Positions 25,781-47,968 of a stretch of 64,000 nucleotides of DNA are shown one piece after another (within the stretch, counting starts at the first letter, position 1; the number at the start of each line of letters is the position of its first letter). This DNA is from Kutzneria viridogrisea (lineage in GTDB: Bacteria > Actinomycetota > Actinomycetes > Mycobacteriales > Pseudonocardiaceae). Where the stretch lies: NCBI GenBank assembly GCA_014138725.1, contig JACJID010000009.1:124001-188000 (forward strand), written 5' to 3'. The notes under the pieces are model-generated. The model did no database searches. It saw only the letters and a program-made list of their open reading frames with translations, and was not told the DNA's origin. The translations under genes were made by a program, and so were the position numbers.

Positions 25781-26167
25781 TCACTGCATCCAGGTCTGGT
25801 TCGAGTAGTCCTCGTCCTCGTCCTCGGCGACCGGGCGGGCGTGCCGCCTGGGCGTCGGCTTGGGCGGCGGCGTGAACTCCGGCGCCACCGGGGCTGCGGG
25901 CCGCTGCGGGGCCTGGTACTCGTCCTCGGTGTCGAAGAAGGTGAAGCCCGCCTCGGGGCGCGGGTCCCGCGCGGGAACGGCGGTGCGCTTGCCCTCCCGC
26001 TTGGCCTTCGCCTCGGCGATCGCCTTGTCGACGACCTGCTGGTTCTGCTCCTTCGCCTCGGCGAGCTTGCGATCGCTCTCGGCGCGCTGCTGCTGCACCG
26101 TCGAGCGCAGCTTGGCCATCTTCTCGATGGCCTCGTCCGCGGCGGCGGTCGCCTCGTCCACGGTCAT
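25781..26167 (-). CDS. Type VII locus coiled-coil protein with acidic-aromatic tail
   Basis: A 128-residue protein of unknown function. Residues 1-65 are a charged helix likely to be a coiled coil (AADEAIEKMAKLRSTVQQQR, AEAKEQNQQVVDKAIAEAKA). A Pro-rich middle follows, and the end is DEDEDYSNQTWMQ. The ATG overlaps the stop of the giant WXG-type gene (ATGA), so it is co-translated as the third gene of that cassette. Its tail resembles that of the 33206-33619 product in the same locus. It may be a chaperone or co-secreted partner; this is inference. Confidence 0.75.
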   Translation of the reverse strand: MTVDEATAAADEAIEKMAKLRSTVQQQRAESDRKLAEAKEQNQQVVDKAIAEAKAKREGKRTAVPARDPRPEAGFTFFDTEDEYQAPQRPAAPVAPEFTPPPKPTPRRHARPVAEDEDEDYSNQTWMQ

Positions 26168-29118
26168 CGCTTGTCCTCCCCGAGCACACTGTCCACAGCG
26201 GACTGCTTGGCGTCGTCGAACAGCGCGCTCTGCGTGCGCCACGGGTTGCTGGTGCGCTCCTGGTCACCGCCCTGACCGCCACCGCCGCCCTGGCCACCGC
26301 CCATCATGCCCATGCCGCCGCCACCCATCATGCCCGCGGGCGCGCCCGCACCGGGTTGCGCGGCGTGCGCGCTGTCGCCGACCGAGGCCAGCCCGGCGTT
26401 GCCGGGACCGGTCGGGTGACCGGCAGCGTCCACGGCACCGGCCTGCACCGCACCACCGTGCGCGGCGCCCCAGGCGCTCGACTGCTGGGCCCCGGCGGGG
26501 GCCGCGCTGTGCTGGCCGGTGTCGGGGCCGCCGACCATGCCGTGGTCCCCGGAGCCGCCGCCCCAGGACAGCGGGCCCGCCGCGGTGTCACCGGTCGCGG
26601 AGCCAACCCCGAACCCGGCCGCCGAGACCGTGGTGCTGGCCGGGGCGTCGAACAGGCTGCCGGAGAACCGGCCCTGGTCGGCGGCCACCGGGGCGCCCGC
26701 GTCGAAACCGGCCACCTCGGTGTGCGCCGCGGCGGGCGCGCTCCAGGTGGGCATCTGCTCGGGCTGGGCCTGTGCGGGCGGGGTCCACGCCCCGGCCGCA
26801 CCCGTGCCCTGACCCGCGCCGACCGGGACATCTCCGACCGGCGACTGCCCGCTGAGCGGGACCTGCTGGGCGGCCCCGTGCTGGCCGGTGGCCTGACCGG
26901 GGATGGTCCCGGCACCGGAGGGCTGGGTGCCGCCCGGGTGCGCCGGGTCCACCGGCGAGGCCTTGGGCCCCGAGGTGTCGTTGTAGTCGATCGTGTAGTT
27001 GTGCGGCGGCATGCCCGAGCCGTCGTCGACGCTGATCTTGACCTCGCCGGGCACCCCGCCCTGCTCGGCGGTGATCGTCAGGTCGCCGTCGTGGATCACG
27101 GCCTTGCCGTCCGGGCCCGCGTGGGTCGGGATGGAGCCGTCGGGGTTGGCCGTGGGCTGCCCCGGCGCGCCCGGCTGACCGGGCACCCCGGTCGGGTGCT
27201 GCCCGGCGACCCCGTGCTGCCCCGGCTGACCGGGCACCTCGGTCGGGTGCTGGCCGGTGACCCCGGTCTGGCCCGGCTGACCGGGCAACCCGGTCTGGCC
27301 CGGCAGCGGCTTGCCGTCCGGCCCCAGCTGGGGCGTGCCCCCGTGCTGGCCCGCCAGCCCGGCGACCGCCGGGTCGTTGGCGATCTTGTTGAAGTCCACG
27401 TCGTAGGTCTTGGGCGCCTTGCCGGAGCCGTCGTCCACCTTGATCTTGACGTGGCCCTGGCCGTCCGGGCTGTCGACCTCGATGTTGTTCGAGCCGTCGT
27501 GGATCTTGACGGTCTCCGCGTGCGCCGCGGCGGTCGAGGCCGGGTCCGGGATCTTGGGCATCTCCGGGGTGGGCGGCTGCGGGGTCTGCGGCATCTGCGG
27601 CATGCCGCCACCACCGCCGCCTCCGCTGGGGCCGCCGCCACCGCCACCGCTGGGGCCGCCACCTCCGCCACCGCCCTGCTGGTGGCCGCCGCCACCGGGC
27701 TTGCCCTTGGGCTGGTCCTGCTGCGGGGAGCCCTCCGGCACCGTGGACAGCCCGCTGAACGGGGTCTTGTTGACCGCGTCGCACGCCTGGATCAGCGGCT
27801 GGAACGCCTGCTTGATGCCCTGGTCGGCGGTCTGCGCGCCCTGGGTCAGCAGCTGCAGGTTCTGCTCGAACTTGTCCTTGAACGCCGGGTCCAGGTACGC
27901 CTTGACGGCGGCGGCCACGGCCTTCAGGAAGATCGTCTCGGTCCAGCCGAGCACGTGCAGCACCGCGTCGACGATGTCACCGAGCAGGTCCATCGCCATC
28001 TCGAGCAGGCCGCCGCTGGGCATCCGGAAGCCGATCAGGTCACCCAGGCCGTTGAACAGCTTCTGGATGATGTCGGCCGCGCTGCTGGCGCCCTTGTAGA
28101 TCCCGATCAGCACGACCAGGTCGCCGTCGGCGATGTCGATGGGCCACTTGATCTGGTCCAGGGTCTGCCCGTAGGCGTCGACGATCTTCTTGGCGGCCTC
28201 GGTCGAGGAGCTCAGCGCGGCGCTGACCTTGGCGATGTCCCCGTCGATGGTCTGCGCCTTGGCGCCGAACTGCTGGGCGTAGGTGCCGAAGGCGTTGGCC
28301 GCGTCCCCGGTCCACGCGCTGCCGACGACCCCGGCGACCTTGCTGCCCATCTCGTCGCGGGTGTGCTGGAAGTCGGTGCCCACCGAGGTGATGTCGGAGG
28401 CCGCCTGGCTCAACTGGCCGTAGTCGATGCCGCGCACGGCGTCGTACTTCGAGCAGATGTCGTTGCGGAAGTCGAGGTTCTTGTCGGTGTAGAGGTTGTA
28501 CCAACCGAGGTAGTGGTTGAACCCATCGAGCTTGTCCAGCTTCTGGTCGCAGACGTCGTCGGAACGACCGGAACCGAAGCTCGCGGTCTGCCCGCTGTTG
28601 CCCGTGTTCCCGGAATTGCCCGTGTTTCCGGTGTTGCCAGTATTGCCCGTGTTCCCGGTGTTGCCCGTGTTCCCGGAATCACCGGTGTTACCGGAACCGT
28701 TCGTGTTGCCGGAATCGCCGGAGTTCGTGGTGTTACCGGAGTTGACGTTGATGTCACCGGTGTTGACACTGACCCCGCCGCTGCCGTCCTTGCCCCCGTT
28801 GCCGTGGTGGTCGTCCCCGCCACCGGGCGGGTTCGGCGGGTTGTGGCCGCCACCCGGCGGGTTGGGCGGGTTTGGCGGATTGTGCCCACCACCCGGCGGG
28901 TTGGGCGGGTTCGGCGGGTTGTGCCCACCGCCAGGCGGGTTGGGCGGGTTCGGTGGATTGTGGCCACCACCGGGCGGATTGTTCGGCGGGTTCGGCGGGT
29001 TGTGCCCACCGCCAGGCGGGTTGGGCGGCGGGTGGTTCGGCGGGTTGTGGCCGCCGCCGGGCGGGTTGTGCCCACCTGATGGCGAGTGCGGCGGGCCGCC
29101 GCGTCCTCCCTTGGCCAT
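26164..29118 (-). CDS. Giant repeat-rich WXG100-like type VII secretion substrate
   Basis: A 984-residue protein with no signal peptide. Residues 15-100 are repeats of GGGHNPPNPPNPP. Residues 117-178 are NTG/NSG repeats (NTGNTGNTGNTG). Residues 225-330 form a helical WXG-like domain with the turn SAWTGDAANAFGTYAQQF, followed to about 450 by an alpha-helical region with hydrophobic stretches. A Gly/Pro linker comes next, then two related small beta modules (about 535-577 and 672-712, both with VDDGSG) flanking collagen-like GQPGQTGVTGQHP repeats. The C-terminus has GMMGGGGMGMMGGGQGGGGG and ends SVLGEDKR. It overlaps its EspC-like neighbour by one base. A secreted or surface-exposed role is inferred from the WXG domain and context. 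Confidence 0.8.
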   Translation of the reverse strand: MAKGGRGGPPHSPSGGHNPPGGGHNPPNHPPPNPPGGGHNPPNPPNNPPGGGHNPPNPPNPPGGGHNPPNPPNPPGGGHNPPNPPNPPGGGHNPPNPPGGGDDHHGNGGKDGSGGVSVNTGDINVNSGNTTNSGDSGNTNGSGNTGDSGNTGNTGNTGNTGNTGNTGNSGNTGNSGQTASFGSGRSDDVCDQKLDKLDGFNHYLGWYNLYTDKNLDFRNDICSKYDAVRGIDYGQLSQAASDITSVGTDFQHTRDEMGSKVAGVVGSAWTGDAANAFGTYAQQFGAKAQTIDGDIAKVSAALSSSTEAAKKIVDAYGQTLDQIKWPIDIADGDLVVLIGIYKGASSAADIIQKLFNGLGDLIGFRMPSGGLLEMAMDLLGDIVDAVLHVLGWTETIFLKAVAAAVKAYLDPAFKDKFEQNLQLLTQGAQTADQGIKQAFQPLIQACDAVNKTPFSGLSTVPEGSPQQDQPKGKPGGGGHQQGGGGGGGPSGGGGGGPSGGGGGGGMPQMPQTPQPPTPEMPKIPDPASTAAAHAETVKIHDGSNNIEVDSPDGQGHVKIKVDDGSGKAPKTYDVDFNKIANDPAVAGLAGQHGGTPQLGPDGKPLPGQTGLPGQPGQTGVTGQHPTEVPGQPGQHGVAGQHPTGVPGQPGAPGQPTANPDGSIPTHAGPDGKAVIHDGDLTITAEQGGVPGEVKISVDDGSGMPPHNYTIDYNDTSGPKASPVDPAHPGGTQPSGAGTIPGQATGQHGAAQQVPLSGQSPVGDVPVGAGQGTGAAGAWTPPAQAQPEQMPTWSAPAAAHTEVAGFDAGAPVAADQGRFSGSLFDAPASTTVSAAGFGVGSATGDTAAGPLSWGGGSGDHGMVGGPDTGQHSAAPAGAQQSSAWGAAHGGAVQAGAVDAAGHPTGPGNAGLASVGDSAHAAQPGAGAPAGMMGGGGMGMMGGGQGGGGGQGGDQERTSNPWRTQSALFDDAKQSAVDSVLGEDKR
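28590..28740 (-). repeat. Tandem repeats encoding (N-T/S-G)n
   Basis: Short 9-base units such as GGCAACACC-like triplets vary in the third base and encode NTG, NSG and NTN. They lie inside the giant WXG-type gene. Unit number is probably variable between strains. Confidence 0.7.
28820..29075 (-). repeat. Tandem repeats encoding GGGHNPPNPPNPP
   Basis: About six imperfect copies of a 39-45-base unit near the 5' end of the giant WXG-type gene. The encoded His/Asn/Pro/Gly units would be extended and flexible. The DNA repeats are coding and in frame, so they are not a CRISPR array. Confidence 0.75.
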
Positions 29119-29435
29119 CAGAGGTCACCACCCTGGTTGCTGAGGTTGGCGGCGTGCGCCGAGTCGGTGTCGGAGTAGTTCTTCGCCGTGTTGCGCAGCC
29201 CCGCGCAGATGTCCTCGGCGTGGCTGCCGAAGTCCTTCACGTTGGCGCTCAACGCCTGCATGGCCTTCTTCACCGCGTCCCCCGCCTGGGGACAGGCCCG
29301 GCCGGTGAGGTCTCCGCTGATGTGCACCGAGTCCAGCCGGGTCCGATAACCGTTGGCCGCTGTCTCGTCCAGTTCGCGGAAGTAGTTGCTGAGCGTGGTG
29401 AGCGACTGCCCATCGACCTTGACGCTACCGCTCAT
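29118..29435 (-). CDS. EspC-like small type VII secretion protein
   Basis: A 105-residue helical-hairpin protein. Its first strand VKVDGQSLTTLSNYFRELDE and its layout fit the EspC-like ESX secretion-associated family. The C-terminal part contains NYSDTD, a YxxxD motif of the kind that targets proteins to type VII systems. I chose the ATG at 29435 (MSGSVKVDG) with GGTGGGG before it; a GTG three codons earlier is possible. It is the first gene of a three-gene cassette and its stop overlaps the giant WXG-type gene by one base. It probably forms a secreted heterodimer with that product, as EspC/EspA or PE/PPE pairs do. Confidence 0.8.
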   Translation of the reverse strand: MSGSVKVDGQSLTTLSNYFRELDETAANGYRTRLDSVHISGDLTGRACPQAGDAVKKAMQALSANVKDFGSHAEDICAGLRNTAKNYSDTDSAHAANLSNQGGDL

Positions 29436-29621: not shown

Positions 29622-30959
29622 CTAGTGGACCGCGGACACCACACCAGCCAGCCGCTGGGCGGCGGACTCGGCCTCGTCGTGGCTGGGCGCCTCGACCATC
29701 ACCCGGACCAGCTGCTCGGTGCCGGAGGGTCGCAGCAGCACCCGGCCGGTCTCCCCCAGCTCGGCGCTGACCTCGGCCACGGCCTTGCTGACCGACTCGG
29801 CCACCGCGACGGCCGCCTTGTCGGTGACCCTGACGTTGATCAGGACCTGCGGCAGCCGCCGCATCACCCCGGCCAGCTCGGCCAGCGACCGGCCGGTGGC
29901 CGCCATCCTGGCCATCAGCCGCATCGCGGTGAGCAGCCCGTCCCCGGTGGTCGCGTGCGAGGGCAGCACCACGTGGCCGGACTGCTCGCCGCCCAGCGCG
30001 AAGCCACCGGCCCGCAGTTCCTCCAGCACGTACCGGTCGCCGACCGCGGTGGTGCGCAGGCTCACCCCGTGCTCGCGCATCGCCAGGTGCAGCCCCAGGT
30101 TGCTCATCACGGTGGCGACCAGCGTGTCGTCCACCAGCTCGCCCGCGTCCTTCATGGCCAGGGCGAGCACGGCCATGATCTGGTCGCCGTCGATCTGCGC
30201 GCCGGAGGCGTCCACGGCCAGGCAGCGGTCGGCGTCACCGTCGTGGGCGATGCCCAGGTCGGCGCCGTGCTCCAGCACCGCGGCCTGCAACACCTCCAGG
30301 TGCGTCGAGCCGCAACCGTCGTTGATGTTCAGGCCGTCCGGGTCCGCGTGGATCGCGATCACCTCGGCACCGGCCCTGCGGTACGCCTCGGGCGCCACGG
30401 TGGCGGCGGCCCCGTTCGCGCAGTCCACCACGACCTTGAGCCCGTGCAGATCGTGCGGAGTGGACAGCAGCAGGTGGTCGGTGTAGCGCTGGACCGCGTC
30501 GGTGACCTCGCGCACCCTGCCGACCCCGGCACCGGTGGGCCGGTCGCCGCCCTGCTCGCCGAGGATGGCCTCGATCTCGTCCTCCACCGAGTCGGACAGC
30601 TTGTGGCCGCCGTCGGCGAAGAACTTGATCCCGTTGTCGGGCATCGGGTTGTGCGAGGCGGAGATCATCACGCCCAGGTCGGCGGACAGCGCGGACACCA
30701 GGTACGCCACGGCGGGCGTGGGCAGCACGCCCACCCGCAGCACGTCGGCCCCGGCCGCGGTCAGCCCGGCGGTGACCGCGGCCTCCAGCATCTCGCCGCT
30801 GGCACGCGGATCCCGGCCGACCACGGCGACCGGCCGGTGCGAGCGGTCGTGCTCGGCCAGTACCCGGGCGGCTGCGGAAGCCAGCGAGAGAGCGAGTTCC
30901 GGGGTCAGGTCCGCGTTGGCGAGACCGCGTACGCCGTCGGTGCCGAACAGGCGAGCCAT
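29622..30959 (-). CDS. glmM: Phosphoglucosamine mutase
   Basis: A 445-residue enzyme converting glucosamine-6-phosphate to glucosamine-1-phosphate for peptidoglycan precursors. It starts [20 protein letters not shown]. The phosphoserine loop is [17 protein letters not shown], the Mg site is [12 protein letters not shown], sugar binding is [10 protein letters not shown], and the phosphate site is [14 protein letters not shown]. It lies after rplM-rpsI on the same strand, the same order as Mycobacterium, and is separated from rpsI by a hairpin. It acts directly downstream of GlmS. Confidence 0.97.
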
Positions 30960-31066: not shown

Positions 31067-31075
31067 GTTCGCGCG

Positions 31076-31642
31076 TTAGCGCTTGCTGTACTGCGGGCCC
31101 TTGCGGGCCTTCTTCAGACCGTACTTCTTGCGCTCCTTGGCCCGCGGGTCACGGGTCAGGAAGCCGGCCTTCTTCAGGGCCGGGCGGTCGTCGATCTCGA
31201 ACTCGATCAGCGCACGGGCGATCGCCAGGCGAAGCGCACCGGCCTGGCCGGAGGTGCCGCCACCGACCAGGTTGCCGATGATGTCGAAGGACTCGGCCCG
31301 CTCCACGGTCACCAGGGGCTCACGGATGAGCTGCTGGTGCACCTTGTTCGGGAAGTACTGCTCCAGGGTCTTGCCGTTCAGCTTGAACTGACCGGAGCCC
31401 GGCACGAGGCGCACGCGGACGATGGCCTCCTTGCGGCGGCCGACGGTCTGGATCAGGCGGTTGGGCAGGACGACCGGGGCAGCCTCGACGGCGGCCTCGA
31501 CCTCAGCGTCAGCGTCGACCGCGGCATCGAACTCGGCGACGGCGTCAGCCTCGGCCGCGACGGCCGACTGGGCGTCTTCGGCGAGCTCGGCCTCGACGGC
31601 GGGCTCGATGTCAGGAGTGGTCACTGGTGCTTCCTCGGTCAC
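31076..31642 (-). CDS. rpsI: 30S ribosomal protein uS9 with acidic N-terminal extension
   Basis: A 188-residue S9. The conserved core begins near residue 60 with [20 protein letters not shown] and ends [12 protein letters not shown], whose C-terminal tail reaches the P-site tRNA. The first ~57 residues are rich in Ala, Glu and Asp ([20 protein letters not shown]) and are not part of the universal protein; similar but often shorter extensions occur in other actinobacteria. The GTG start overlaps the rplM stop (GTGA). Confidence 0.96.
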
Positions 31643-32082
31643 TGGGCGATCTTCGTGATCTCGAACGGCTGCGGCGCCTGGGCCGCGTGCGGGTGGGCCG
31701 GGCCCGCGTACACCTTCAGCTTGGTCGCCATGGCGCGACCGAGCCTGTTGTGCGGCAGCATGCCCTTGATGGCCTTCTCGACCAGGCGCTCGGGGTGCTT
31801 GTCCAGCATCTCGCCGAAGGAGCGCTTGCTGAGACCACCCGGGTGACCGCTGTGGCGGTACACGAAGGACTGGTCGCGCTTGCTACCGGTCAGCGCCACC
31901 TTGTCCGCGTTCACGACGACGACGAAGTCGCCGGTGTCCACGTGAGGGGCGTAAGTCGGCTTGTGCTTGCCGCGCAGCAGCGTCGCGACCTGCGTGGCGA
32001 GCCGGCCGAGCACCACGTCCTGGGCGTCGATGACGTGCCAGGCGCGGTTCACCTCGCCGGCCTTCGGGCTGTACGTGCGCAC
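31639..32082 (-). CDS. rplM: 50S ribosomal protein uL13
   Basis: A 147-residue L13 that binds 23S rRNA early in 50S assembly. It has [20 protein letters not shown] at the start, VGRLATQVA-like [20 protein letters not shown] and the end motif [20 protein letters not shown]. The start codon is GTG. It leads the rplM-rpsI pair. The 292 bases upstream contain its promoter, which I could not place, and the terminator of the esx pair. Confidence 0.97.
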
Positions 32083-32374: not shown

Positions 32375-32665
32375 TCAGCCCCAGAGCTTCTTGGCCGCGC
32401 CCTCGGCGTTCTGGTAGCCCTCGCCGGCCTGCTGCACGGCGGAGCCGATCGCGGCCAGCGTGGCGAACAGGTCCGCGGCGGCCTGGTCCCAGCGGCGCTG
32501 CGCCTCCTGGTAGGACTCCGAGGCCTCACCGGTCCACTCGCCGACAACCGGGGCCAGCTTGCTCTTGAGCTGGTCGAGGTGGCTCTCGATCGACTGGTGG
32601 ATGCTCTTGATGTCAGAAGCCGCCTGCGCGACCTCAGCGAAAGTAACCTGTACGTGCCCGCCCAT
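32375..32665 (-). CDS. WXG100 family type VII substrate (EsxA-like)
   Basis: A 96-residue helical-hairpin protein with the turn GEWTGEASESYQEAQRRW, which carries the WxG motif. The C-terminal helix contains GYQNAEGAA, a YxxxE secretion motif. It follows another WXG100 gene by 84 bases and probably forms an antiparallel heterodimer with that product, which EccC recognises. By synteny it corresponds to EsxT of the mycobacterial ESX-4 locus (next to rplM), but the sequence is too divergent to assign a symbol with confidence. Confidence 0.92.
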   Translation of the reverse strand: MGGHVQVTFAEVAQAASDIKSIHQSIESHLDQLKSKLAPVVGEWTGEASESYQEAQRRWDQAAADLFATLAAIGSAVQQAGEGYQNAEGAAKKLWG

Positions 32666-39648: not shown

Positions 39649-41058
39649 GTGAAGGGGGCGCTCGTGGCGACCGGAACGACGGTGTTCAGCCGGGTGACGG
39701 TGGTCGCGCCGCGAACGCGGATCGACGTCGCGTTGCCGTCGGACGTCGCGGTTGCCGACCTGATGCCCATGCTGCTGGAGATGGCCCGTGAGGCCACACC
39801 GGACGGTGGCGCGCGGCACGGTGGCTGGTGCCTGGCCAAGCTCGGCGACAGCCCGCTGGATCCCAGCAGGACGCTCGCCTCGCTGGGCGTGGTCGACGGG
39901 GACATGCTCCAGCTGCGCAAGCGCTCGGAGAACCCGCCGCCACCGCTGTACGACGACGTGGTGGACGCGATCGCCGAGTCCAATCCGGACAGCTTCCGGC
40001 CGTGGACCCCCGAGACGGCACGGCGGATCGGGCACGTGGCCGGTGCGCTGGCGCTGATCGGCTCGGCGGTGGCCGTGCTGCTGGCCGGTCCGCTGCTGGG
40101 CGGCAACGGGCTGGCCGCCGCGATCGCCGCCGGCGTGGCGATGATCGCCTTCGTCGCGGTCGGCGCCGTGCTCGCCAGGGTCTACGCCGCCCCGATCACC
40201 GGGTTGATCGTGGCCGCGGCGGGCGGTCTGCCGATGGCCTTCGTCTGCGGGCTGTACGTGGTGCCGGGCACCCCGGGCCGGTGGAGCCTGCTGCTGGCCT
40301 GCGCGCTGGTGATGGTGGTGTCCTGGGCCTGCATCCTGGTCGTCGGCTCCGGGGTCACCGTGTTCATCGCCGCGGTGACCTTCTCCACGCTGGGCGCGCT
40401 GGCCTTCCTGGTCGGCGCGCTGCTGGACACCCAGCCGATCGCGGGCATCGCCGCGGGCGCCGCGGCGGTGGGCCTGGTCGCGCTGTCCTGGTTGCCGCGC
40501 ATGACGATCCAGCTCGCGAAGCTGCCGCTGCCGACCGTGCCGGGCAACGCCGAGGACCTCAAGGACGACGGCGGTTTCCCCGACTACGCGGTGATCGAGC
40601 GGCGCGCGGGCCTGGCCCACGAGTTCATGACCGGCATGATCATCGGCAGCGGCATCACCGCCGCCGTGGCCTCGGTGCTGGCCGCCACCTCGGGCACCAT
40701 CTGGGGCCCGGTCTTCGCCGTGGTGGTGACCCTGGTGATGCTGCTGCGCTCGCGCACCTACGCCAACGGCAGCCAGGCGGTGGCGCTGCTGACCAGCGGC
40801 ATCGTCTCCTCCGCCGGTGTGCTCATCGGCTGGCTGGTCAACTCCGACCCGGTCGGCAGGCTGCTGTGGGTGTTCGGCACCCTCGCGCTGCTCGGTGCCG
40901 CCGCACTGGTGCTGGGCGCGGTCTTCCCCAAGCAGAAGTTCTCGCCGGTGCTGCGCCGCTCCGTGGACATCTTCGAGGCGATCTGCATCGCCGCCGTCGT
41001 GCCGCTGGCACTGGCCGTGATGGACCTGTACAACACGCTGCGGCACCTGAACTTCTGA
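39649..41058 (+). CDS. eccD: Type VII secretion integral membrane protein EccD
   Basis: A 469-residue protein. The N-terminal ubiquitin-like domain (about 1-85) has FSRVTVVAPRTRIDVALPSD and LASLGVVDGDMLQLRKRSE. About eleven membrane segments follow from residue 130 on (for example HVAGALALIGSAVAVLLAGP). It forms the bulk of the membrane channel complex with EccB, EccC and EccE. The GTG at 39649 has AGGAGA seven bases upstream; a GTG at 39664 is also possible. It is divergent from eccC and followed after 11 bases by mycP, as eccD4-mycP4 are in Mycobacterium. Confidence 0.93.
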   Translation: MKGALVATGTTVFSRVTVVAPRTRIDVALPSDVAVADLMPMLLEMAREATPDGGARHGGWCLAKLGDSPLDPSRTLASLGVVDGDMLQLRKRSENPPPPLYDDVVDAIAESNPDSFRPWTPETARRIGHVAGALALIGSAVAVLLAGPLLGGNGLAAAIAAGVAMIAFVAVGAVLARVYAAPITGLIVAAAGGLPMAFVCGLYVVPGTPGRWSLLLACALVMVVSWACILVVGSGVTVFIAAVTFSTLGALAFLVGALLDTQPIAGIAAGAAAVGLVALSWLPRMTIQLAKLPLPTVPGNAEDLKDDGGFPDYAVIERRAGLAHEFMTGMIIGSGITAAVASVLAATSGTIWGPVFAVVVTLVMLLRSRTYANGSQAVALLTSGIVSSAGVLIGWLVNSDPVGRLLWVFGTLALLGAAALVLGAVFPKQKFSPVLRRSVDIFEAICIAAVVPLALAVMDLYNTLRHLNF

Positions 41059-41069: not shown

Positions 41070-42545
41070 ATGCGCATGGGGAGGACGCGTCGGCTCACGG
41101 CCGTGGCCGGGGCCGTGCTGGTGGGCGTACTGGGTCCTGGCCTGGCACCGGCGGTGGCGCAGCAGGCGCCCACGGGCGGACTGACCGCCGGGGTGCCGCC
41201 ACGCTGGGACGGTGCGCGGATCAACGACAACCCGAACCCCGGCCCGAGCGTGGGCGCCGAGGGCTGGACCCTCAAACCGCCGACCACGCAGTGCGTGACC
41301 TCGTTCAAAAAGGCCACGATCTCCGAGTTCCCGCTGGGACAGCCGTGGCTGCGGCTGGACGAGGCGCACCGCTGGGCCACCGGCAAGGGCCAGACCGTCG
41401 CGGTGATCGACACCGGGGTGAACGACCACCAGTACATCAAGGTCACCAAGTCCGGGGACTACCTCGGGCAGACCCCGGGACTCGGCCCCGGCAAGCGCGA
41501 CTGCGACGGCCACGGCACCGAGGTCGCGGGCATCATCGCCGCCCACCCGGACAACACCAAGGTCGGCTTCCAGGGCGTGGCCCCGGACGCGAACATCATG
41601 TCGGTGCGCCAGTCCAGCAGCGTCATCAAGCGCAGCAAGGAGAACCAGGAAGCCACCGCGGGCAGCCCGACCACCCTGGCCTACGCGATCAAGTGGGCGG
41701 TCTCCCAGGGCGCCAGCGTGATCAACATCTCGCTGGCCTCCTGCTTGCAGGTGAGCCCGAACATGAGCTTCACCTCCGACCAGAAGCAGTTGCAGGCCGC
41801 CATCCATGAGGCCGTGGAGAACAAGGTCGTGATCGTGGCCGCCGCGGGCAACCTCCAGCAGCAGGGCCAGAACTGCGGCACGCAGAACGACAACCCCGAC
41901 CCGAACGCGCCCAAGTGGATCGAGTCCCCGGCCTGGTTCGCCGAGGACGTGCTGTCGGTGGCCGCCCTCGCCGCGGACAGCAGCAACGGCGAGCAGGTCG
42001 GCCAGCCCGCGAGCTTCTCCATGTGGGGACCATGGGTCGGCGTGGCCGCGCCCGGTACCAAGATCATCTCACTGGACCCCGGCTCAACCGACGGCATGGC
42101 CAACCAGACCATCGAGGGCGGTCAGACGCAGAGCATCCAGGGCACCAGCTTCGCCGCGCCCTACGTGGCCGGGTTAGCCGCGCTGGTCAAGGAGAAGTTC
42201 CCGAACCTGGACGCGCACCAGGTGATCCGGCGCATCGAGATGACGGCCCAGCACCCGGCCGCACCCGGCGGGCGCAACAACCAGGTCGGCTACGGCATGA
42301 TCGACCCGGTGGCCGCGCTGACCGCGATCGTGCCCGGTGAGCCGGGCGGCCCGCAGGTGGCCAGCGGCCAGCAGATCGCCTCGGACCTGGGCTCGCCCGC
42401 GGACAACGGGCTCCCGCCGATGGTCATCGCGATGCTCGGCACCGCGGCGGGCGTGGTCCTGCTGCTGATCACCCTGTTCGTGGTGCACGCGGTGAACACC
42501 AGCAAGCGGCGCCAGGCGGTGCAGCCCTCGCGGCTGCGCATCTGA
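41070..42545 (+). CDS. mycP: Type VII secretion-associated subtilisin-like protease, mycosin
   Basis: A 491-residue membrane-anchored serine protease. It has a signal peptide (RRLTAVAGAVLVGVLGPGLA), the catalytic triad Asp in TVAVIDTGVN, His in CDGHGTEVAGI and Ser in QGTSFAAPYVAGLAAL, and the oxyanion Asn in VIVAAAGN. A C-terminal membrane segment (MVIAMLGTAAGVVLLLITLF) and a basic tail keep it in the membrane. Cysteines around CVTSFKK, CDGHG, SCLQ and NCGT are placed for disulfides as in mycosins. It begins 11 bases after eccD. Confidence 0.95.
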   Translation: MRMGRTRRLTAVAGAVLVGVLGPGLAPAVAQQAPTGGLTAGVPPRWDGARINDNPNPGPSVGAEGWTLKPPTTQCVTSFKKATISEFPLGQPWLRLDEAHRWATGKGQTVAVIDTGVNDHQYIKVTKSGDYLGQTPGLGPGKRDCDGHGTEVAGIIAAHPDNTKVGFQGVAPDANIMSVRQSSSVIKRSKENQEATAGSPTTLAYAIKWAVSQGASVINISLASCLQVSPNMSFTSDQKQLQAAIHEAVENKVVIVAAAGNLQQQGQNCGTQNDNPDPNAPKWIESPAWFAEDVLSVAALAADSSNGEQVGQPASFSMWGPWVGVAAPGTKIISLDPGSTDGMANQTIEGGQTQSIQGTSFAAPYVAGLAALVKEKFPNLDAHQVIRRIEMTAQHPAAPGGRNNQVGYGMIDPVAALTAIVPGEPGGPQVASGQQIASDLGSPADNGLPPMVIAMLGTAAGVVLLLITLFVVHAVNTSKRRQAVQPSRLRI

Positions 42546-42631: not shown

Positions 42632-42639
42632 TGGAGGGG

Positions 42640-43710
42640 TCAGCGCTCCTCGCCGATGACGGGCGGTGCGGTCTTCTCCGGGGCGCCGAGCAGGTCCCTC
42701 AGGTCCCCGCTGAGCCGGATCTTGGCCTTGTGCTCCTGGTCCTCGCCGCCCTTGCCGCCGCCCTGACCACCACCCATCATGCCGCCGCCCATCATGCCGC
42801 CCGCGCCCGGCGCACCGGGTTGGCCGGGCGCACCGGCGTGGGCCGCGGCGGCAGCGGGCGGTGCGGTGAACGGCTCCGCGGCGGGCGGGGTCGCGCCCGT
42901 CATGGAACCGGGACCGGTTGGCGCTGCTGGGGCGGCACCGGCACCGGCCGCCGCGGGCATGGCGAACCCGCCGCCACCGCCACCGGCGTGCGGGGCCGCA
43001 CCGCCACCACCACCGCCACCGGCATGCGCGCCCGCTGCCGCAGCGGCGGCGGCTGCGGTGGGCTGGGCCGCCGCGGGTGGCGGGGGTGGCGCGACGGGCT
43101 GCTTTGGCTTGTCCCCGTAGTCGTAGGACCAGTTCTGCGCGGGCACCTCGTGCTTGACGGTGATCTTCGAGAACGGGTCCTCGCCGTGCACCCCGTCGCA
43201 CAGCTTGGTGAAGGCCTCCAGCACGTCCCGGACCGCCTCGAACAGCTGGCGGGTCGGCCGGTGCTGGTCGTCCAGGTACTCGGCGGCGCGCTTGTCCCCG
43301 TGCACCGGCACGGCCATCGCGCCGGACACCGACTCCGCGCTGTCGGCGAGCACCTCGCCCATCTCCGTCACCAGCTTGTGCACGCCGTCCGCGGTCTGGT
43401 CCAGCGCGTCGGCCATGGCGTTCATGGCATCGGACAGGTCGTTGCCGGACAGGCCGAACCCCTGCATGTAGGCGACGAAGGAGTCCGCGTCCTTGCCCTG
43501 CCACGCCGCGTCCAGCCCACCAAGCGAGCGCTTGAGCGAGTCGGTGACCTCGGCGGCGACCTTCGCGGCGGCACGCCAGCGCTCCGCCTCCTCGTGCAGC
43601 GCGCTGGGTTTGCCGACCACCGGGGCGTAGTACTGCTCCACCGGGTCGGTCACCCCGAGCTGGCGGCTGATCTGGGACAGGTAGTCCAGGTGCCCCTGGC
43701 TGACGGCCAT
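42640..43710 (-). CDS. WXG/PPE-like large type VII substrate
   Basis: A 356-residue protein. The N-terminal helical domain (to about residue 175) has a WXG-type turn LDAAWQGKDADSFVAYMQGF. A low-complexity Ala/Gly/Pro region follows, with GGMMGGGMMGGGQGGGKGG and then DQEHKAKIRLSGDLRDLLG, ending VIGEER. The Gly/Met block and charged tail parallel those of the giant 984-residue protein, so both look like members of one PPE-like substrate family. The ATG at 43710 overlaps the stop of the upstream small gene (TGATG); a GTG one codon earlier would overlap as GTGA. Confidence 0.85.
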   Translation of the reverse strand: MAVSQGHLDYLSQISRQLGVTDPVEQYYAPVVGKPSALHEEAERWRAAAKVAAEVTDSLKRSLGGLDAAWQGKDADSFVAYMQGFGLSGNDLSDAMNAMADALDQTADGVHKLVTEMGEVLADSAESVSGAMAVPVHGDKRAAEYLDDQHRPTRQLFEAVRDVLEAFTKLCDGVHGEDPFSKITVKHEVPAQNWSYDYGDKPKQPVAPPPPPAAAQPTAAAAAAAAGAHAGGGGGGGAAPHAGGGGGGFAMPAAAGAGAAPAAPTGPGSMTGATPPAAEPFTAPPAAAAAHAGAPGQPGAPGAGGMMGGGMMGGGQGGGKGGEDQEHKAKIRLSGDLRDLLGAPEKTAPPVIGEER

Positions 43711-44024
43711 CACCGACCACCCGCCCTGCGGATCGAGGCCGCGACGTCCTCGTCGTGCGAGCTGAAGTGCTCCGCGGTCTTGGACAGCGCCGCCGAGGCC
43801 GAGTTCAGTGCGTCCACGGCCCGGCTCAGCTGGTCCTGGAGGGTCTTGGCGGCCTGCTGGTACGCCTTGTCGGTCCCGGTGTTGCGGCCCAGTTCGCCGA
43901 ACGCCTCGGCGGGCAGCTGCCCGGACCGGAGCGTGTCGCGCGCGGTGCCCAGCTCACTGCCCGAGCGGGCCACGGTACTGGCGTAACCCTTGATCCACTC
44001 GGGATCGACCTTGATACCGGTCAC
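43710..44024 (-). CDS. EspC-like small type VII secretion protein
   Basis: A 104-residue helical protein (VDPEWIKGYASTVARSGSEL, QLSRAVDALNSASAALSKTA) similar in size and placement to the 29118-29435 product. The C-terminus has HFSSHDEDV, where Phe replaces Tyr of a YxxxD motif. The GTG start has AGGAGGT upstream. It is coupled to the WXG/PPE-like gene and presumably forms a dimer with its product. Confidence 0.8.
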   Translation of the reverse strand: MTGIKVDPEWIKGYASTVARSGSELGTARDTLRSGQLPAEAFGELGRNTGTDKAYQQAAKTLQDQLSRAVDALNSASAALSKTAEHFSSHDEDVAASIRRAGGR

Positions 44025-44088
44025 GCCCGTACCTCCTGCTCGCGAACCTGTTCCCCTCCGACGCCGCGCGGCCCCCGCCCGGTTCCCC

Positions 44089-45780
44089 TCAGTTGCCGGG
44101 TGTGCCTGGGGTACCGGAGGTCTGCGGGGACCCGAACGAGCCGACGTTGGCCGGTGGCGATGCCGAGTCGTAGGTCTTGGTGGCCAGCGCCGGGTCGAGC
44201 TGGGTGCCCGAGGGCAGCAGCCCGACGATCTGCGCGGGCGCGGGCGGGAAGGTCACCGGGTCGCCGAGGCCGAGGCCCTGCGCCACCTGCGTGCCCGTCA
44301 TGCCCTTGGTCGAGGAGGCCACCCCGTACTTCACACCCAGGTCGGAGATCACGTAGATCGGCCCGGAGTAGCCCGCGTTCGTCCCGAAGGCCTTGTCCTG
44401 GTCCGAGACGCTGCCCCGCACCACGGCGGCCTGACCGGTGGGCATGTAGAACTGCGTCACCAACTGCCCGTCGGTGCTGGGCGTGCCGATCGGCTGGGCC
44501 TTCTTGTCCAGCGGCACCGGGTTGGTGTCCTTGGGCAGCACGGTCACCGTGGAGTGCTGCTCGTTGCCCTGGTAGGTCCAGGTGACGCAGCTGGTCTGGT
44601 TCTGGGTCGGGTCGACCGGGTTGGACGCCTGCTGCGGGAAGTTGTCGAACGGCTGCTCGCTGGTGTCCTCGCGGATCTGGCTGATGTCGAAGGGCTGCGC
44701 CTGGATCTCGGAGCCCGACACCTGGTTGCTGAACTCCAGCACGTGGGCCGCCGCCGGGGAGATCTTGTGCGTGCCGTCCTTGAGCAGCACGTAGCGCTGG
44801 TCCACGTCGCTGCCGTTGGTCACGTGCAGCACCGAGCCGATGACCGCGCCCTTGACGTTGAACTTGGAGGGCTGGTTCACCGAGGGGATTTCCGGGGCCT
44901 TGAGGTCGGCCACCTGCGGGATGGCGTTGAGCATCGCCGTGCTCACCGGGGTCGCGTAGGCGGGGTCGAGCCGGTAGGCGGCCTTGATCGCGGGGTCGTC
45001 CAGGAAGACCTTGGCCCGCACGGCCCGCGAGTTGGTCTCCACCCGGGACGACTGGGTGGGCGCGTACAGCGGCGCGGGTCGCTTGTAGACCAGGTAGTAG
45101 GTCTTGTCCGGGGTGACCATCAGGATGGGTGAGTCACCGAGCTCCGTGCCCAGGTTGGACATGCCCGCCAGCACGGTCACCGTCACCTTGCCGGTCACCG
45201 GGGTCGGCGTGTTCGCCAGGTTCACCGTGTCGCACAGCGCCCAGTCGTTGCTGACGCGCTGACTCGATCCCGCGCCCGGCAGCAGCTGGGGCCCGTCGAC
45301 CAGGCCCTGCTTCTTGTCCCGGGGCACGTTCTTCAGCGCGTCGTCGTCGACCACTGTGACGGCGGCGACCGGGGGCGCGCTCGCGTTCTGCCCGCCGCCC
45401 TGCGCCGCGCCGCCGCCCTGCGCGCCGTTCTGCTGCTGGGCGAGCAGCAGCAACCGAGCCGAGGTCACGTTGAAGGTCGGCACGAGCCGCTGGTTGCTCT
45501 GCGCGGCCTGGCCCATCAGCGCGTAGACGGCACCGGACTGCTTGCCGATCACCACCCCCTGCTCACTGGGCAGCGATCCCGCGGGGTTGAGCACCCCGAA
45601 GATCACGAAGCCGATGCTGATGACCATGGCCACCAGCACGCCGACGGCCACGGCTCTGATGTGTGAGCTCATCGGGTCGTGCAGCATGACCGCGTCCTTG
45701 CGGACGAGAGCCGACTCCATCCTCCGCAGCATGAAGCGGTACGCCTGGACTTGCGACTTGCTGGTGGGTGTTGATGGCAT
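44089..45780 (-). CDS. eccB: Type VII secretion protein EccB
   Basis: A 563-residue membrane protein. The short cytoplasmic start MPSTPTSKSQVQAYRFMLRR is typical of EccB, followed by one membrane segment (about residues 42-62, AVAVGVLVAMVISIGFVIFG) and a large periplasmic region made of the repeat domains of this family, with Cys pairs in LCDTVN and SCVTWTY. In other systems it forms the periplasmic part of the channel. ATG at 45780 is chosen by homology; the frame is open to 45876. It is divergent from eccE and lies 64 bases after the EspC-like gene on the other side. Confidence 0.94.
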   Translation of the reverse strand: MPSTPTSKSQVQAYRFMLRRMESALVRKDAVMLHDPMSSHIRAVAVGVLVAMVISIGFVIFGVLNPAGSLPSEQGVVIGKQSGAVYALMGQAAQSNQRLVPTFNVTSARLLLLAQQQNGAQGGGAAQGGGQNASAPPVAAVTVVDDDALKNVPRDKKQGLVDGPQLLPGAGSSQRVSNDWALCDTVNLANTPTPVTGKVTVTVLAGMSNLGTELGDSPILMVTPDKTYYLVYKRPAPLYAPTQSSRVETNSRAVRAKVFLDDPAIKAAYRLDPAYATPVSTAMLNAIPQVADLKAPEIPSVNQPSKFNVKGAVIGSVLHVTNGSDVDQRYVLLKDGTHKISPAAAHVLEFSNQVSGSEIQAQPFDISQIREDTSEQPFDNFPQQASNPVDPTQNQTSCVTWTYQGNEQHSTVTVLPKDTNPVPLDKKAQPIGTPSTDGQLVTQFYMPTGQAAVVRGSVSDQDKAFGTNAGYSGPIYVISDLGVKYGVASSTKGMTGTQVAQGLGLGDPVTFPPAPAQIVGLLPSGTQLDPALATKTYDSASPPANVGSFGSPQTSGTPGTPGN

Positions 45781-45920
45781 TCTCGGCTCGCAGCTCTCCC
45801 GGTCGCGGTACGGTTCCGCAGGATAGCGGGACCGTGATCCGCCCGGGTGCCGTTCCGACGGACCCGATCGGATCACCTGCGCAGCACCGAGAGCAACGCC
45901 GAGGGGAAGAGACCGAGCGG

Positions 45921-47237
45921 ATGTCCGTCACCACTCCACATCCGGGACCGCCCAACACGGGCCTGCCCTCGCCCGCTGCGGCGGCAGGCGCCCCGCGCGC
46001 CGCGCTGACGGTGCGCCGCCGCAAGGTCGGCGCCAGCCTCGGCGGCCTGCCGGTGGCCAACCTCGTCGTGCTCGAGGTGGGGCTGGGCCTGGGGCTGCTG
46101 CTGCTCGCGGTGAACCACTCGCTGCTGCCCGTCGCGGGCGGCATCGCGGTGCTCGCGCTGCTGGTGGCCTTCCTGCGCTGGGGTGGCCGCTGGTTCACCC
46201 AATGGGTTGGCCTCACCCTGCGCTACCTGTTCCGCTCGCACGCCCGCGCGGCGACCCCGTCGGCGGTACCCGCCGCGGACCCCGACTGGGTGGACGACGA
46301 CGAGCGCATCACCGGTCCGGAGGACCCGAGGGTCGACCTGCTCCGGCTGGCCGTGCCGGACCTGGTCATCGCGCACGGCACCGACCACGAGCGACGCCCG
46401 CTCGGCCTCGCCTGGCACGAGGGCACCTGGACCGCAGTGCTGCGCGTGGAGCCCGCCCCGCAGCTGGTGACCCCGATCGGCAAGGCGCCCAACCTGCCGC
46501 TCGGTGCGCTCGCGCCCTGTCTGGAGGACCGGGGCGTGGTGCTCGACGCCATCCAGGTGCTGTGGCACTGCTACCCGGGCAGCGCCGTGCTGCCGCCCTC
46601 CTCGGACGCGCTGTCGGCCTACCTGGAGGTGCTCGGCCCGCTGCCCGCCTCGGCACGGCGGACCACCCTGGTCGCCGTCCGGCTGGACCCGCGCCGCTGC
46701 GGGGAGGCCGTGCGCGAGCGGGGCGGCGGCGTGGTCGGCGCGCACCGGGCGCTGATCGGGGCGCTGTCCCGGGTCCGCAGCGCACTGGAGGCCCGCGGGG
46801 TGCAGACCAGCCCGCTGGACCCCGACGAACTGATGGCCGCGGGCCTGTCCGCCGCCGAGCTGACCACCGCGCTGGGCGCCGACGGGGAGGTCGGGCTGCG
46901 CGAGAAGTGGGCCGGGGTGACGGCCGCGGGCATCGGACACTCCAGCTACGCGATCACCAACTGGCCAGGCAAGGGCATCAGCGGCAGCCTGAACGCCCTC
47001 ACCAGCATCCGCGCGCTGTCCTCCACGGTGACGATGTCGATCTCGCCGGGCGCCCAGGAGGGCGAGGTGGGTCTGCGCGGGCTCGTGCGGGTCAGCGCCC
47101 GCACCCCCAGCGAGCTGTCCAGCGCCGAGAGCCGCCTGGAGAAGCTGGGCGAGCGGATCGGGCTGTCCCTGACCCCGCTGCGGGGCCTACAGGCCGCCGG
47201 GCTCGCCGCGACGCTGCCCTACGGAGGCTCAGCATGA
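45921..47237 (+). CDS. eccE: Type VII secretion protein EccE
   Basis: A 438-residue protein with two membrane segments (about residues 45-63 and 66-84: [38 protein letters not shown]) followed by a cytoplasmic domain of mixed fold. Length and topology fit EccE, the outer component of the ESX membrane complex. ESX-4 of M. tuberculosis lacks eccE, but fuller ESX-4 loci in other actinobacteria have it. The ATG at 45921 is preceded by only weak purine-rich sequence. The stop overlaps the next gene (ATGA). Confidence 0.8.
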   Translation: MSVTTPHPGPPNTGLPSPAAAAGAPRAALTVRRRKVGASLGGLPVANLVVLEVGLGLGLLLLAVNHSLLPVAGGIAVLALLVAFLRWGGRWFTQWVGLTLRYLFRSHARAATPSAVPAADPDWVDDDERITGPEDPRVDLLRLAVPDLVIAHGTDHERRPLGLAWHEGTWTAVLRVEPAPQLVTPIGKAPNLPLGALAPCLEDRGVVLDAIQVLWHCYPGSAVLPPSSDALSAYLEVLGPLPASARRTTLVAVRLDPRRCGEAVRERGGGVVGAHRALIGALSRVRSALEARGVQTSPLDPDELMAAGLSAAELTTALGADGEVGLREKWAGVTAAGIGHSSYAITNWPGKGISGSLNALTSIRALSSTVTMSISPGAQEGEVGLRGLVRVSARTPSELSSAESRLEKLGERIGLSLTPLRGLQAAGLAATLPYGGSA

Positions 47238-47968
47238 CCGCAAGTCAGAGCAGGGCCCAGGACACGCTGGGCAAGAACACCGCGCTGGCGCCGGAGTACC
47301 TGGTGTCCCCGGCGATGCTCGACGCGGTGAGCCCGTCCGCGGAGAGCGGCGGCGTGCTGCTGGGCTCGGACCCCAAGAACGAGCCCGCCAGCGTCGCCCT
47401 GCTGCGCAACCTGCCCACCCGCGTGGTCGCGCTGGGCGGGCTGTACCTGGCCAGGCAGATCGCGCTTCGGGCGATGGCCGCGGGTGCGTGGGTGATCGTC
47501 GCGACCGGGCGCCCGCAGGCCTGGCAGGTGCTCAGCCGGGCCGCGGGCACCACCCCGGACGGCCGCCCGCTGCCGCTGGTGCAGCTGCGCAGGCTCTCCC
47601 CGATCGAGCTGCCGCAGGGCACCGAGGACAGCCCGCTGCTCGTGGTGCACGATGGCGGCGCGACCCCGGTGGAGCTGTTCCCGCCGCGCTCGCCGTGGCA
47701 GACCACCATGTACGTGCTGCCCTACCTGCACCCGCAGGCCAGCACCGTGGCGTTCAACGCGGACCTGGTGCTGATACAGCGCCTGCAGGCCGCGCAGGCG
47801 CAGCTGGCGGGCCGGATCTGGCGGCTGCGCCCGCAGATGGTCAACGAGCTGGCCGGGCTCAAGGACGACCAGGTGATCGCGCTGGGCCGGGACCTGTGGC
47901 TACCGGTTCGACTGGTCAGCCAGGCGATGGAGCAGCAGATCCTGGGGCCGGTCCGCCGAGGCGACTGA
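47234..47968 (+). CDS. Conserved protein coupled to eccE, unknown function
   Basis: A 244-residue cytoplasmic protein. It has no signal peptide, membrane segment or P-loop that I can see. Blocks such as NLPTRVVALGGLYLARQIAL, AMAAGAWVIVATGRPQAWQV, STVAFNADLVLIQRL and RPQMVNELAGLKDDQVIALG suggest an alpha/beta fold. The ATG has GGAGG upstream and overlaps the eccE stop. This type of gene occurs beside eccE in related loci, so a role in assembly or regulation of the secretion system is likely. It ends at a strong terminator. Confidence 0.8.
   Translation: MTASQSRAQDTLGKNTALAPEYLVSPAMLDAVSPSAESGGVLLGSDPKNEPASVALLRNLPTRVVALGGLYLARQIALRAMAAGAWVIVATGRPQAWQVLSRAAGTTPDGRPLPLVQLRRLSPIELPQGTEDSPLLVVHDGGATPVELFPPRSPWQTTMYVLPYLHPQASTVAFNADLVLIQRLQAAQAQLAGRIWRLRPQMVNELAGLKDDQVIALGRDLWLPVRLVSQAMEQQILGPVRRGD

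What the first reader, a model, noticed from the sequence alone, without database searches (positions are those of the whole stretch)
25781..47968. ESX-4-like secretion locus expanded by two extra substrate cassettes
The block eccC, Hsp70-like/Rv3446c-type gene, esx pair, rplM, rpsI, glmM keeps the gene order of mycobacterial ESX-4, but it also has eccE, a coupled unknown gene, and two cassettes not found in M. tuberculosis ESX-4: 29435-25781 (EspC-like, giant WXG-type, coiled-coil) and 44024-42640 (EspC-like, WXG/PPE-like). No espG, PE or PPE gene is present. This looks like an ancestral ESX-4 with its own dedicated substrates, and the cassettes may be an undescribed substrate class.
Basis: partly seen in the sequence, partly recalled or inferred. 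Interest (0 to 1): 0.7.

Follow-up and report, generated by a model that had tools for sequence, protein, structure and literature searches.

The report
Ancient secretion locus with conserved partners
This is a complete, old-type bacterial protein export machine flanked by two pairs of genes that look like its cargo; one pair turns out to be shared with mycobacteria, and a puzzling extra gene turns out to be one half of a known machine part.

Summary
Two interpretations change. (1) Cassette 1, after glmM, is not an extra of this lineage. Both partners follow glmM in 31 of 39 judgeable same-family loci (window included) and 25 of 45 in the Mycobacterium-containing family; in 80 named mycobacterial loci an EspC-like gene adjoins the WXG gene in 78, with glmM just upstream in 69 of these. 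Profiles match over 242 columns, E 7.5e-36. By position it corresponds to M. tuberculosis Rv3440c-Rv3439c (inferred). Cassette 2, between mycP and eccB, looks family-specific: 21 of 41 versus 0 of 11. (2) The 'coupled unknown gene' is the C-terminal half of EccE: separate in 16 of 16 same-family loci, fused in 17 of 20 others. Its model resembles FtsK/HerA/EccC ATPases but lacks a Walker A motif. EccE's spread beside ESX-4 does not fit a published model in which eccE came later. Export of the cassettes is inferred, not shown.

The parts
25781..26167 (-). cassette 1, small coiled-coil protein (128 aa), overlapping the giant gene (ATGA)
   Evidence: a homologue directly after the giant gene in G314 and, more weakly, G367; no convincing family match
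26164..29118 (-). cassette 1, giant PPE-like WXG protein (984 aa): Pro/Gly-rich N-terminus, helical region with WXG domain (about aa 189-461), long Gly/Met-rich region, conserved C-terminal tail
29118..29435 (-). cassette 1, EspC/PE-like partner (105 aa, motif YSDTD)
29622..30959 (-). glmM
31076..31642 (-). rpsI
   Evidence: named by gene order, recurs with glmM; no profile run
31639..32082 (-). rplM
   Evidence: named by gene order, recurs with glmM; no profile run
32375..32665 (-). esxT-type WXG100 protein (WTG, YQNAE)
   Evidence: named by gene order
32750..33067 (-). esxU-type WXG100 protein (WKG, YAAQE)
   Evidence: named by gene order
33634..35466 (-). Rv3446c-type protein: Hsp70-like ATPase domain, one hydrophobic (likely membrane) helix seen by eye, TIGR03931 domain
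35468..39571 (-). eccC (1367 aa)
   Evidence: 150 of 150 sampled family genomes have a match at E <= 1e-100
39613..41058 (+). eccD
41070..42545 (+). mycP (subtilase, 491 aa; start chosen by eye)
42640..43713 (-). cassette 2, PPE-like WXG protein (357 aa) with Gly/Met-rich region and tail ending PPVIGEER
43710..44024 (-). cassette 2, EspC/PE-like partner (104 aa, FSSHD in place of Y-x3-D/E)
44089..45876 (-). eccB
45921..47237 (+). eccE, N-terminal part (PF11203/TIGR03923)
47234..47968 (+). EccE C-terminal half as its own gene (244 aa), 4-nt overlap with eccE; predicted FtsK/HerA-like fold without Walker A

Best explanation
The locus is a complete ESX-4-type type VII secretion system of an actinomycete (most likely Pseudonocardiaceae; no call names it). 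EccB, EccC, EccD and a two-piece EccE form the membrane machine and MycP the mycosin. EccE is split: one gene carries the TIGR03923 part, the next a P-loop-less FtsK/HerA-like domain that is fused to EccE in most relatives examined outside the family; it probably docks as a non-catalytic structural domain on the cytoplasmic side. Each flanking cassette encodes one EspC/PE-like hairpin with a C-terminal Y/F-x3-D/E motif and one PPE-like protein with WxG, which would pair into the composite signal read by EccC and be exported folded. The PPE-like partners carry long Gly/Met-rich regions, presumably disordered, and a conserved tail, so the likely cargo is an envelope-located or secreted scaffold or regulator. 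Cassette 1 is an old, ESX-4-linked pair shared with mycobacteria; cassette 2 is a family-specific second pair. Shown: gene content, homology, synteny, split versus fused EccE, predicted fold. Inferred: pairing, export, placing, function.
For: Core components; eccC match in 150 of 150 sampled family genomes. Cassette 1 after glmM: both partners in 31 of 39 same-family loci (window included), one in 7, none in 1; in the Mycobacterium-containing family 25, 9 and 11 of 45; same test on the opposite strand 0 of 39 and 0 of 45. Named mycobacteria: 78 of 80 EspC-like neighbour, 70 of 80 glmM within 1.5 kb upstream, 69 both. Orthology: WXG partners E 7.5e-36 over 242 columns (25 of 34 and 17 of 20 sequences) and E 5.4e-32 over 224 columns with all 34 and 20; EspC partners E 5.8e-14 (24 of 27 and 15 of 24). 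Controls: the 60 aa before the WXG domain match between families (E 1.2e-14) but not cassette 2 (E 0.42); the part after it 4.7e-11 versus 0.0054; Esx proteins align over 87 columns only. Cassette 2: 21 of 41 judgeable same-family loci; of 67 EspC2 matches at E <= 1.4e-24, 58 lie 4.1-10.0 kb from ESX-4 eccC, 0 farther on the same contig, 8 on another contig, 1 without a listed eccC. EccE: the C-terminal profile hits the end of single-chain EccE; 17 of 20 loci fused, 3 split; different ORFs in 16 of 16 same-family loci where both parts are visible. Fold: pLDDT 83; Foldseek HerA E 1.5e-6, T. curvata EccC 4.3e-5, EssC D3 9.0e-5; 0 of 18 rows have GK[ST]. Motifs: Y-x3-D/E in 26 of 27 same-family EspC1; WxG in 34 of 34 partners, partly by construction.
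Against: No secretion data. Only 12 of 24 EspC1 relatives in the second family have Y-x3-D/E (16 with a relaxed motif), and 17 of 20 partners there have WxG. Cassette 1 is missing from 11 of 45 loci there. EspC2 is below the Pfam EspC cut-off and has F for Y in the motif. The helical region of the giant protein has no PDB match at E <= 0.001; the best type VII relative seen, PPE15, ranks 32nd at E 0.24. No related PDB chain matches the EccE C-domain by sequence (best E 0.042, unrelated), and its Foldseek TM-scores are only about 0.5 with large rmsd. In 60 of 103 genomes of the second family that have the EccE C-domain it is not within 40 kb of glmM on the same contig (14 farther, 46 on other contigs). 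Weaker EspC-like matches also occur far from ESX-4.
Confidence: 0.72

Rival explanations
1. The PPE-like proteins are not released cargo but act as cytoplasmic or membrane-bound partners of the machine (chaperone or plug), with the EspC-like proteins as cofactors.
For: Linkage to the machine genes over two families; long low-complexity regions and fixed tails could bind machine parts; no export data.
Against: Both motif halves of the known T7 signal are present in the window pairs, with F for Y in EspC2; the profile of the EspC1 partners matches EsxB (E 9.3e-7), PE25 (0.0037) and, not significantly, EspB (0.47) chains.
Confidence: 0.2
2. The cassette-1 PPE-like protein is an exported regulator of a site-2 protease: its presumed M. 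tuberculosis counterpart Rv3439c (Ppr2) binds the Rip1 PDZ domain, and ESX-4 would carry it to that side of the membrane.
For: A review passage says a yeast two-hybrid screen with the Rip1 PDZ domain found Rv3439c, named Ppr2 (PMC6963305, one passage read). Rv3441c is GlmM (PMC3414508, search listing only), so by tag order Rv3440c-Rv3439c hold the cassette-1 position. All 7 g2 homologues in A4 end in TPC[EQ]IAAD[EQ]LP[QK][VA]Gx.
Against: Rv3439c was not sequence-tested here; the tail differs in the window's family; that the Rip1 PDZ domain faces outward is recalled; a two-hybrid result is weak evidence.
Confidence: 0.15
3. One reading: two lineage-specific substrate cassettes added to ESX-4, absent from mycobacteria.
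For: Fits cassette 2: 0 of 11 judgeable loci of the other family.
Against: Cassette 1 is in mycobacteria at the same place with the same domain order.
Confidence: 0.05
4. The gene after eccE is an unrelated accessory protein that only happens to resemble EccE.
For: No Pfam, NCBIfam or PHROG match.
Against: Same domain, same order, on one ORF with EccE in 17 of 20 relatives of the other family.
Confidence: 0.03

Closest known systems
ESX-4 (T7SSa) of mycobacteria, and ESX-4EVOL (PMC4791881)
   Same: EccB, EccC, EccD, MycP, Rv3446c-type protein, EsxU/EsxT-type pair, rplM-rpsI-glmM beside it; ESX-4EVOL also has eccE.
   Different: Split EccE; EspC/WXG pairs at both flanks; no EspG-family match on this contig, whereas ESX-4EVOL is described with eccA, espG, espI, pe and ppe; it sits at the glmM site.
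PE-PPE and EspC-type type VII substrate pairs
   Same: Small hairpin protein encoded just upstream of a larger WxG protein.
   Different: Cassette 1 has its own conserved regions before and after the WXG domain; no EspG gene on the contig.
M. tuberculosis Rv3440c-Rv3439c (Ppr2)
   Same: Position after glmM and domain types, by inference from named mycobacteria.
   Different: Not compared by sequence here; in g2 homologues the C-terminal tail differs and the low-complexity region is shorter.
EccE (TIGR03923); M. smegmatis EccE3 structure (PMC6986878)
   Same: The N-terminal gene matches TIGR03923 nearly end to end.
   Different: A C-terminal FtsK/HerA-like domain on a separate gene. The ESX-3 paper (passages read) describes the EccE3 cytoplasmic domain as weakly glycosyltransferase-like; those passages mention no ATPase-like extra domain.
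FtsK/HerA/EccC ATPase domains
   Same: Predicted fold.
   Different: No GK[ST] in 18 of 18 rows.

Membership tests
ESX-4 type VII secretion system | EccB, EccC, EccD and MycP together | tested here: met
ESX-4 type VII secretion system | Rv3446c-type protein and esx pair between eccC and rplM | tested here: met
ESX-4 type VII secretion system | no eccA, espG or espI in the locus | tested here: inconclusive
   EspG: 13 matches, none on contig C9. EccA: no match over the cut-off in the genome; partial sub-cut-off matches on other contigs. espI was not searched.
ESX-4 type VII secretion system | secretes its EsxU/EsxT-type pair | not testable with these tools
   needs experiment
EspC/PE-like T7 partner (EspC1) | PF10824 over its cut-off | tested here: met
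   35.8 bits against 23.5
EspC/PE-like T7 partner (EspC2) | PF10824 over its cut-off | tested here: not met
   20.0 bits against 23.5; profile similarity to EspC1 E 4.2e-11
EspC/PE-like T7 partner | Y-x3-D/E motif after the second helix | tested here: inconclusive
   EspC1 YSDTD met; EspC2 FSSHD, F for Y; 26 of 27 same-family EspC1, 12 of 24 in the other family
PPE family (PF00823) | PF00823 over its cut-off | tested here: not met
   giant protein 17.8 bits against 26; cassette-2 protein no listed match at E <= 0.05
Cassette-1 WXG family shared with mycobacteria | conserved pre- and post-WXG regions plus position after glmM | tested here: met
EccE C-terminal domain | homologous to the C-terminal part of single-chain EccE and collinear with it | tested here: met
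Active FtsK/HerA-type ATPase | Walker A motif | tested here: not met
   0 of 18 rows with GK[ST]
T7 secreted substrates | EccC-dependent export | not testable with these tools
   needs experiment

The most novel reading that the evidence does not exclude
EccE, with a C-terminal pseudo-ATPase of the FtsK/HerA fold, belongs to the original ESX-4 rather than being a later plasmid-borne addition, and was lost in most Mycobacterium; and the pair after glmM is the dedicated, widespread ESX-4 cargo overlooked in mycobacteria (Rv3440c-Rv3439c), which would make ESX-4 the exporter of an envelope-side partner of the Rip1 site-2 protease.
Probability: 0.3. Interest if true: 0.8.

Novelty: new variant of a known kind. 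Interest (0 to 1): 0.55.

Why it matters
[quoted passage not shown] A conserved pair next to ESX-4 in two families gives a specific candidate. The EccE result bears on how the machine was built: a 2016 model places the gain of eccE, pe and ppe on a plasmid after ESX-4 (PMC4791881, passages and ESX-4 section read), whereas here eccE accompanies glmM-linked ESX-4 in many genera, and one half of it looks like a dead relative of the motor fold.

Tried and rejected
Rejected: (1) cassette 1 as a lineage-specific expansion. (2) The gene after eccE as an unknown accessory. (3) A plasmid link for the cassettes found no support: tblastn of the EccE C-half and of the cassette-2 EspC each match one record of 72,556, the same 2.8-Mb Streptomyces replicon, without gene annotation at that place; the cassette-1 proteins were not searched there. 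(4) The second eccC of this genome as a full ESX copy: in the stretch fetched (11 kb on one side, 4.9 kb on the other) it has WXG/EspC-like genes but no eccB, eccD or eccE match; one 449-aa ORF gave a MycP match at E 2e-22, overlaps another called ORF and was not followed.

Led nowhere: PDB sequence search with the EccE C-domain (nothing related); Foldseek with the giant protein's helical region (no match at E <= 0.001); Rfam (gathering threshold) and tRNA scans of the window (none). EccE could not be scored in the 80 named mycobacterial loci, because the 9-kb flanks end before its usual place; the 'False' column for EccE is therefore not used. The list cannot show fused EccE, because it gives each ORF one label; the split count is taken instead.

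Weak points: gene calls in relatives are ORF-based without curated starts; the EspC and WXG profiles were built partly from loci that are then counted, became broad after iteration, and loose thresholds were used (WXG E < 1e-3, EspC E < 1e-2), so hits were counted only by position, with the opposite strand as the only control; loci were chosen by me, mostly one per genus, not at random; genus names for the unnamed G genomes are inferred from the named matches.

Full report
WHAT IS THERE. The window lies in a 10.2-Mb genome (G000, contig C9) that no call names; size, GC and content fit Pseudonocardiaceae (recalled). Profile searches confirm a complete ESX-4-type locus: EccC, EccD, MycP, EccB, EccE, an Hsp70-like protein with the TIGR03931 'T7SS_Rv3446c' domain, two WXG100 proteins and glmM. 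The two cassettes are as described: EspC-like + 984-aa WXG protein + small coiled-coil protein after glmM, and EspC-like + 357-aa WXG protein between mycP and eccB. A match to eccC at E <= 1e-100 was found in 150 of 150 genomes sampled from the same family.

HOW RELATIVES WERE EXAMINED. I used ESX-4 neighbourhoods of 51 same-family loci (f1, the window included) and 47 loci of the family f2, called ORFs and annotated them with the window's proteins; 13 further loci of other families were looked at. f2 contains genus g2, taken to be Mycobacterium because a profile of seven g2 proteins returned only Mycobacterium, Mycolicibacterium, Mycolicibacter or Mycobacteriaceae names (80 of 80 loci kept, of 185). 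For cassette 1, 39 f1 and 45 f2 loci could be judged; 12 f1 and 2 f2 could not (no glmM, or under 1.5 kb after it).

CASSETTE 1 IS SHARED WITH MYCOBACTERIA. Within 5.5 kb after glmM and on its strand, both partners are found in 31 of 39 f1 loci, one partner in 7, none in 1 (G321, only 1.7 kb available). In f2 the numbers are 25, 9 and 11 of 45; among the seven g2 genomes six have both and one has the WXG partner only. The same test on the opposite strand gives 0 of 39 and 0 of 45. In named mycobacteria, 78 of 80 loci have an EspC-like gene beside the WXG gene, 70 have glmM within 1.5 kb upstream, 69 both. Profile comparison of the WXG partners (25 of 34 f1 and 17 of 20 f2 sequences) aligns 242 columns at E 7.5e-36; with all 34 and 20 it is 224 columns at E 5.4e-32. 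The EspC partners (24 of 27 and 15 of 24) align at E 5.8e-14. Controls show that this is not only the common WXG domain: the roughly 60 residues before it match between f1 and f2 at E 1.2e-14 but not cassette 2 (E 0.42), the part after it at 4.7e-11 versus 0.0054, and Esx proteins align with f1 over 87 columns only. The shared pattern before the WXG domain reads roughly SDELLDxGxxGLxxFxxFLPLY...YDExRGIDF. In M. tuberculosis, Rv3441c is GlmM (title in the listing), so by tag order Rv3440c-Rv3439c hold this place; I did not compare their sequences. No paper in the held library has two of the terms Rv3440c, Rv3439c and ESX-4. Six papers name either gene; two of them were read at that passage, the others only in the listing.

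CASSETTE 2 LOOKS LIKE A FAMILY ADDITION. It is present in 21 of 41 f1 loci where the mycP-eccB gap can be seen, absent in 17, unclear in 3; in f2 it is absent in 11 of 11 judgeable loci, 36 being not judgeable. A profile search over 150 family genomes found a match at E <= 1e-5 in 118; the 67 matches at E <= 1.4e-24 lie 4.1-10.0 kb from the ESX-4 eccC in 58 cases, on another contig in 8, and one had no listed eccC; none is farther away on the same contig. Weaker matches are other EspC-like genes, many far away. The cassette is patchy even within the window's own genus (G352 lacks it, gap 696 bp).

THE COUPLED GENE IS HALF OF EccE. A profile of this protein hits the C-terminal part of single-chain EccE in f2 (G235 404-498, G074a 402-512, G278 329-417). 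In 20 further f2 loci, chosen from those near glmM, the two parts are on one ORF, N then C, in 17 and on two overlapping ORFs in 3 (G550, G579, G556). In f1 they are on different ORFs in 16 of 16 loci where both are visible. In the window they overlap by four bases (ATGA). The domain is in 58 of 121 genomes of an order-wide sample and 103 of 121 of f2, in 29 of 31 genera. Of those 103, 43 have it within 40 kb of glmM on the same contig, 14 farther, 46 on other contigs only. Of the 18 f2 genomes without a match, 14 belong to g2, g284 and g286; five of seven g2 genomes have none and the other two have copies away from glmM. In the order-wide sample I compared the 15 f1 genomes by eye: in 14 the domain lies 5.8-8.5 kb from eccC, in the fifteenth the two are on different contigs. 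In several f3 genomes (for instance G467, G522, G482) it lies on the eccC contig but some 140-180 kb away.

FOLD. AlphaFold2 gives the EccE C-half pLDDT 83. Foldseek ranks a HerA chain first (E 1.5e-6); T. curvata EccC (4.3e-5) and S. aureus EssC D3 (9.0e-5) are third and fourth, FtsK and VirB4 chains follow, at TM about 0.5. None of 18 sequences has GK[ST]; the loop reads GGLYLARQ or similar. The likely reading is a domain that has kept the motor fold and lost nucleotide binding; TM-scores are moderate and this needs a structure. The ESX-3 cryo-EM paper describes the EccE3 cytoplasmic domain as weakly glycosyltransferase-like (passages read); that part corresponds to the first gene here.

HOW IT PROBABLY WORKS. 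In known type VII systems a Y-x3-D/E partner and a WxG partner form a helical dimer that is exported folded (established knowledge; folded dimers also stated in PMC6986878). The window's EspC1 has YSDTD, EspC2 FSSHD, and both large partners have WxG. Among relatives, 26 of 27 f1 EspC1 proteins keep Y-x3-D/E but only 12 of 24 in f2 do; WxG is in 34 of 34 f1 and 17 of 20 f2 partners, partly by construction since a WXG profile found them. The helical region of the giant protein is predicted with pLDDT 92 but has no PDB match at E <= 0.001; PPE15 ranks 32nd. The large partners have long Gly/Met- or Pro-rich stretches and end in tails that recur within each cassette and lineage: roughly (D/E)QERS...WRT..LFD...VLG in f1 cassette 1, (D/E)(Q/K)EHK..R....LFG.P....PPVIG in cassette 2, TPC[EQ]IAAD[EQ]LP in all seven g2 proteins, and LAEAGPL or similar in several other f2 genera. 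Fixed tails after low-complexity regions suggest a binding site, for a machine part or an envelope partner. A review passage reports Rv3439c (Ppr2) as a two-hybrid partner of the Rip1 PDZ domain. If the counterpart is right, ESX-4 would deliver a protease regulator; this is a hypothesis only.

AGAINST PUBLISHED VIEWS. The plasmid-mediated model has ESX-4 without eccE, pe and ppe, which are gained on a plasmid and return as ESX-4EVOL in some species, Nocardia among them. Papers read in passages say eccE4 is confined, among mycobacteria, to the abscessus-chelonae group. [quoted passage not shown] the primary 2016 source was not read). What I did not find in print is the split and the FtsK/HerA-like C-half; one search for it returned four papers, of which one (PMC10906988) was read in passages on EccE4 only. 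The present distribution fits an ancestral eccE with losses better than a late gain, but no gene tree was made, so transfer between loci is not excluded.

VERDICT. The locus is a known kind of system with a split EccE, one shared and one private partner pair.

Noticed in passing
L178:10291-12922 (G000:C9, about 8 kb beyond the window's right end): A third EspC-like/WXG-like cassette between rpoC and rpsL (gene names by eye): a 196-aa protein that looks YbaB-like, an EspC-like protein with a low-complexity extension (277 aa) and a WXG-like protein (403 aa). EspC-like matches some 30-37 kb from eccC recur in a number of family genomes.
   Followed up: partly
L179:7629-18303 (G000:C1): The genome's second eccC stands without an eccB, eccD or eccE match in the fetched stretch (11 kb and 4.9 kb flanks) but has several WXG/EspC-like genes beside it.
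   Followed up: partly
G000, contigs C1, C2, C3, C5, C6, C8: Thirteen EspG-family (PF14011) genes, none on the ESX-4 contig; one (C5:673340-674068) lies beside an EspC-family match at C5:674587.
   Followed up: no
window 24781-25743 (+): A PETase-like alpha/beta hydrolase (PF12740 E 1.2e-14) next to cassette 1 in the opposite direction.
   Followed up: no
joined loci G311 (L048/L049), G307 (L056/L057); L129 (G366): Extra DNA of several kb inside the ESX-4 locus: between esxT and rplM in G311 and G366 (in G366 with a second MycP match), between eccC and the Hsp70-like gene in G307. Content not examined.
   Followed up: no
joined locus G322 (L044/L045) and L137 (G442), genus g225: Rearranged ESX-4: eccB and eccE lie downstream of eccC instead of upstream, and in G322 the Hsp70-esx-rplM block lies on the other side of eccC.
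   Followed up: no
window 26164-29118 and 42640-43713, C-termini: Both large partners share a Gly/Met-rich stretch (GMMGGG...QGG) before different conserved tails.
   Followed up: partly
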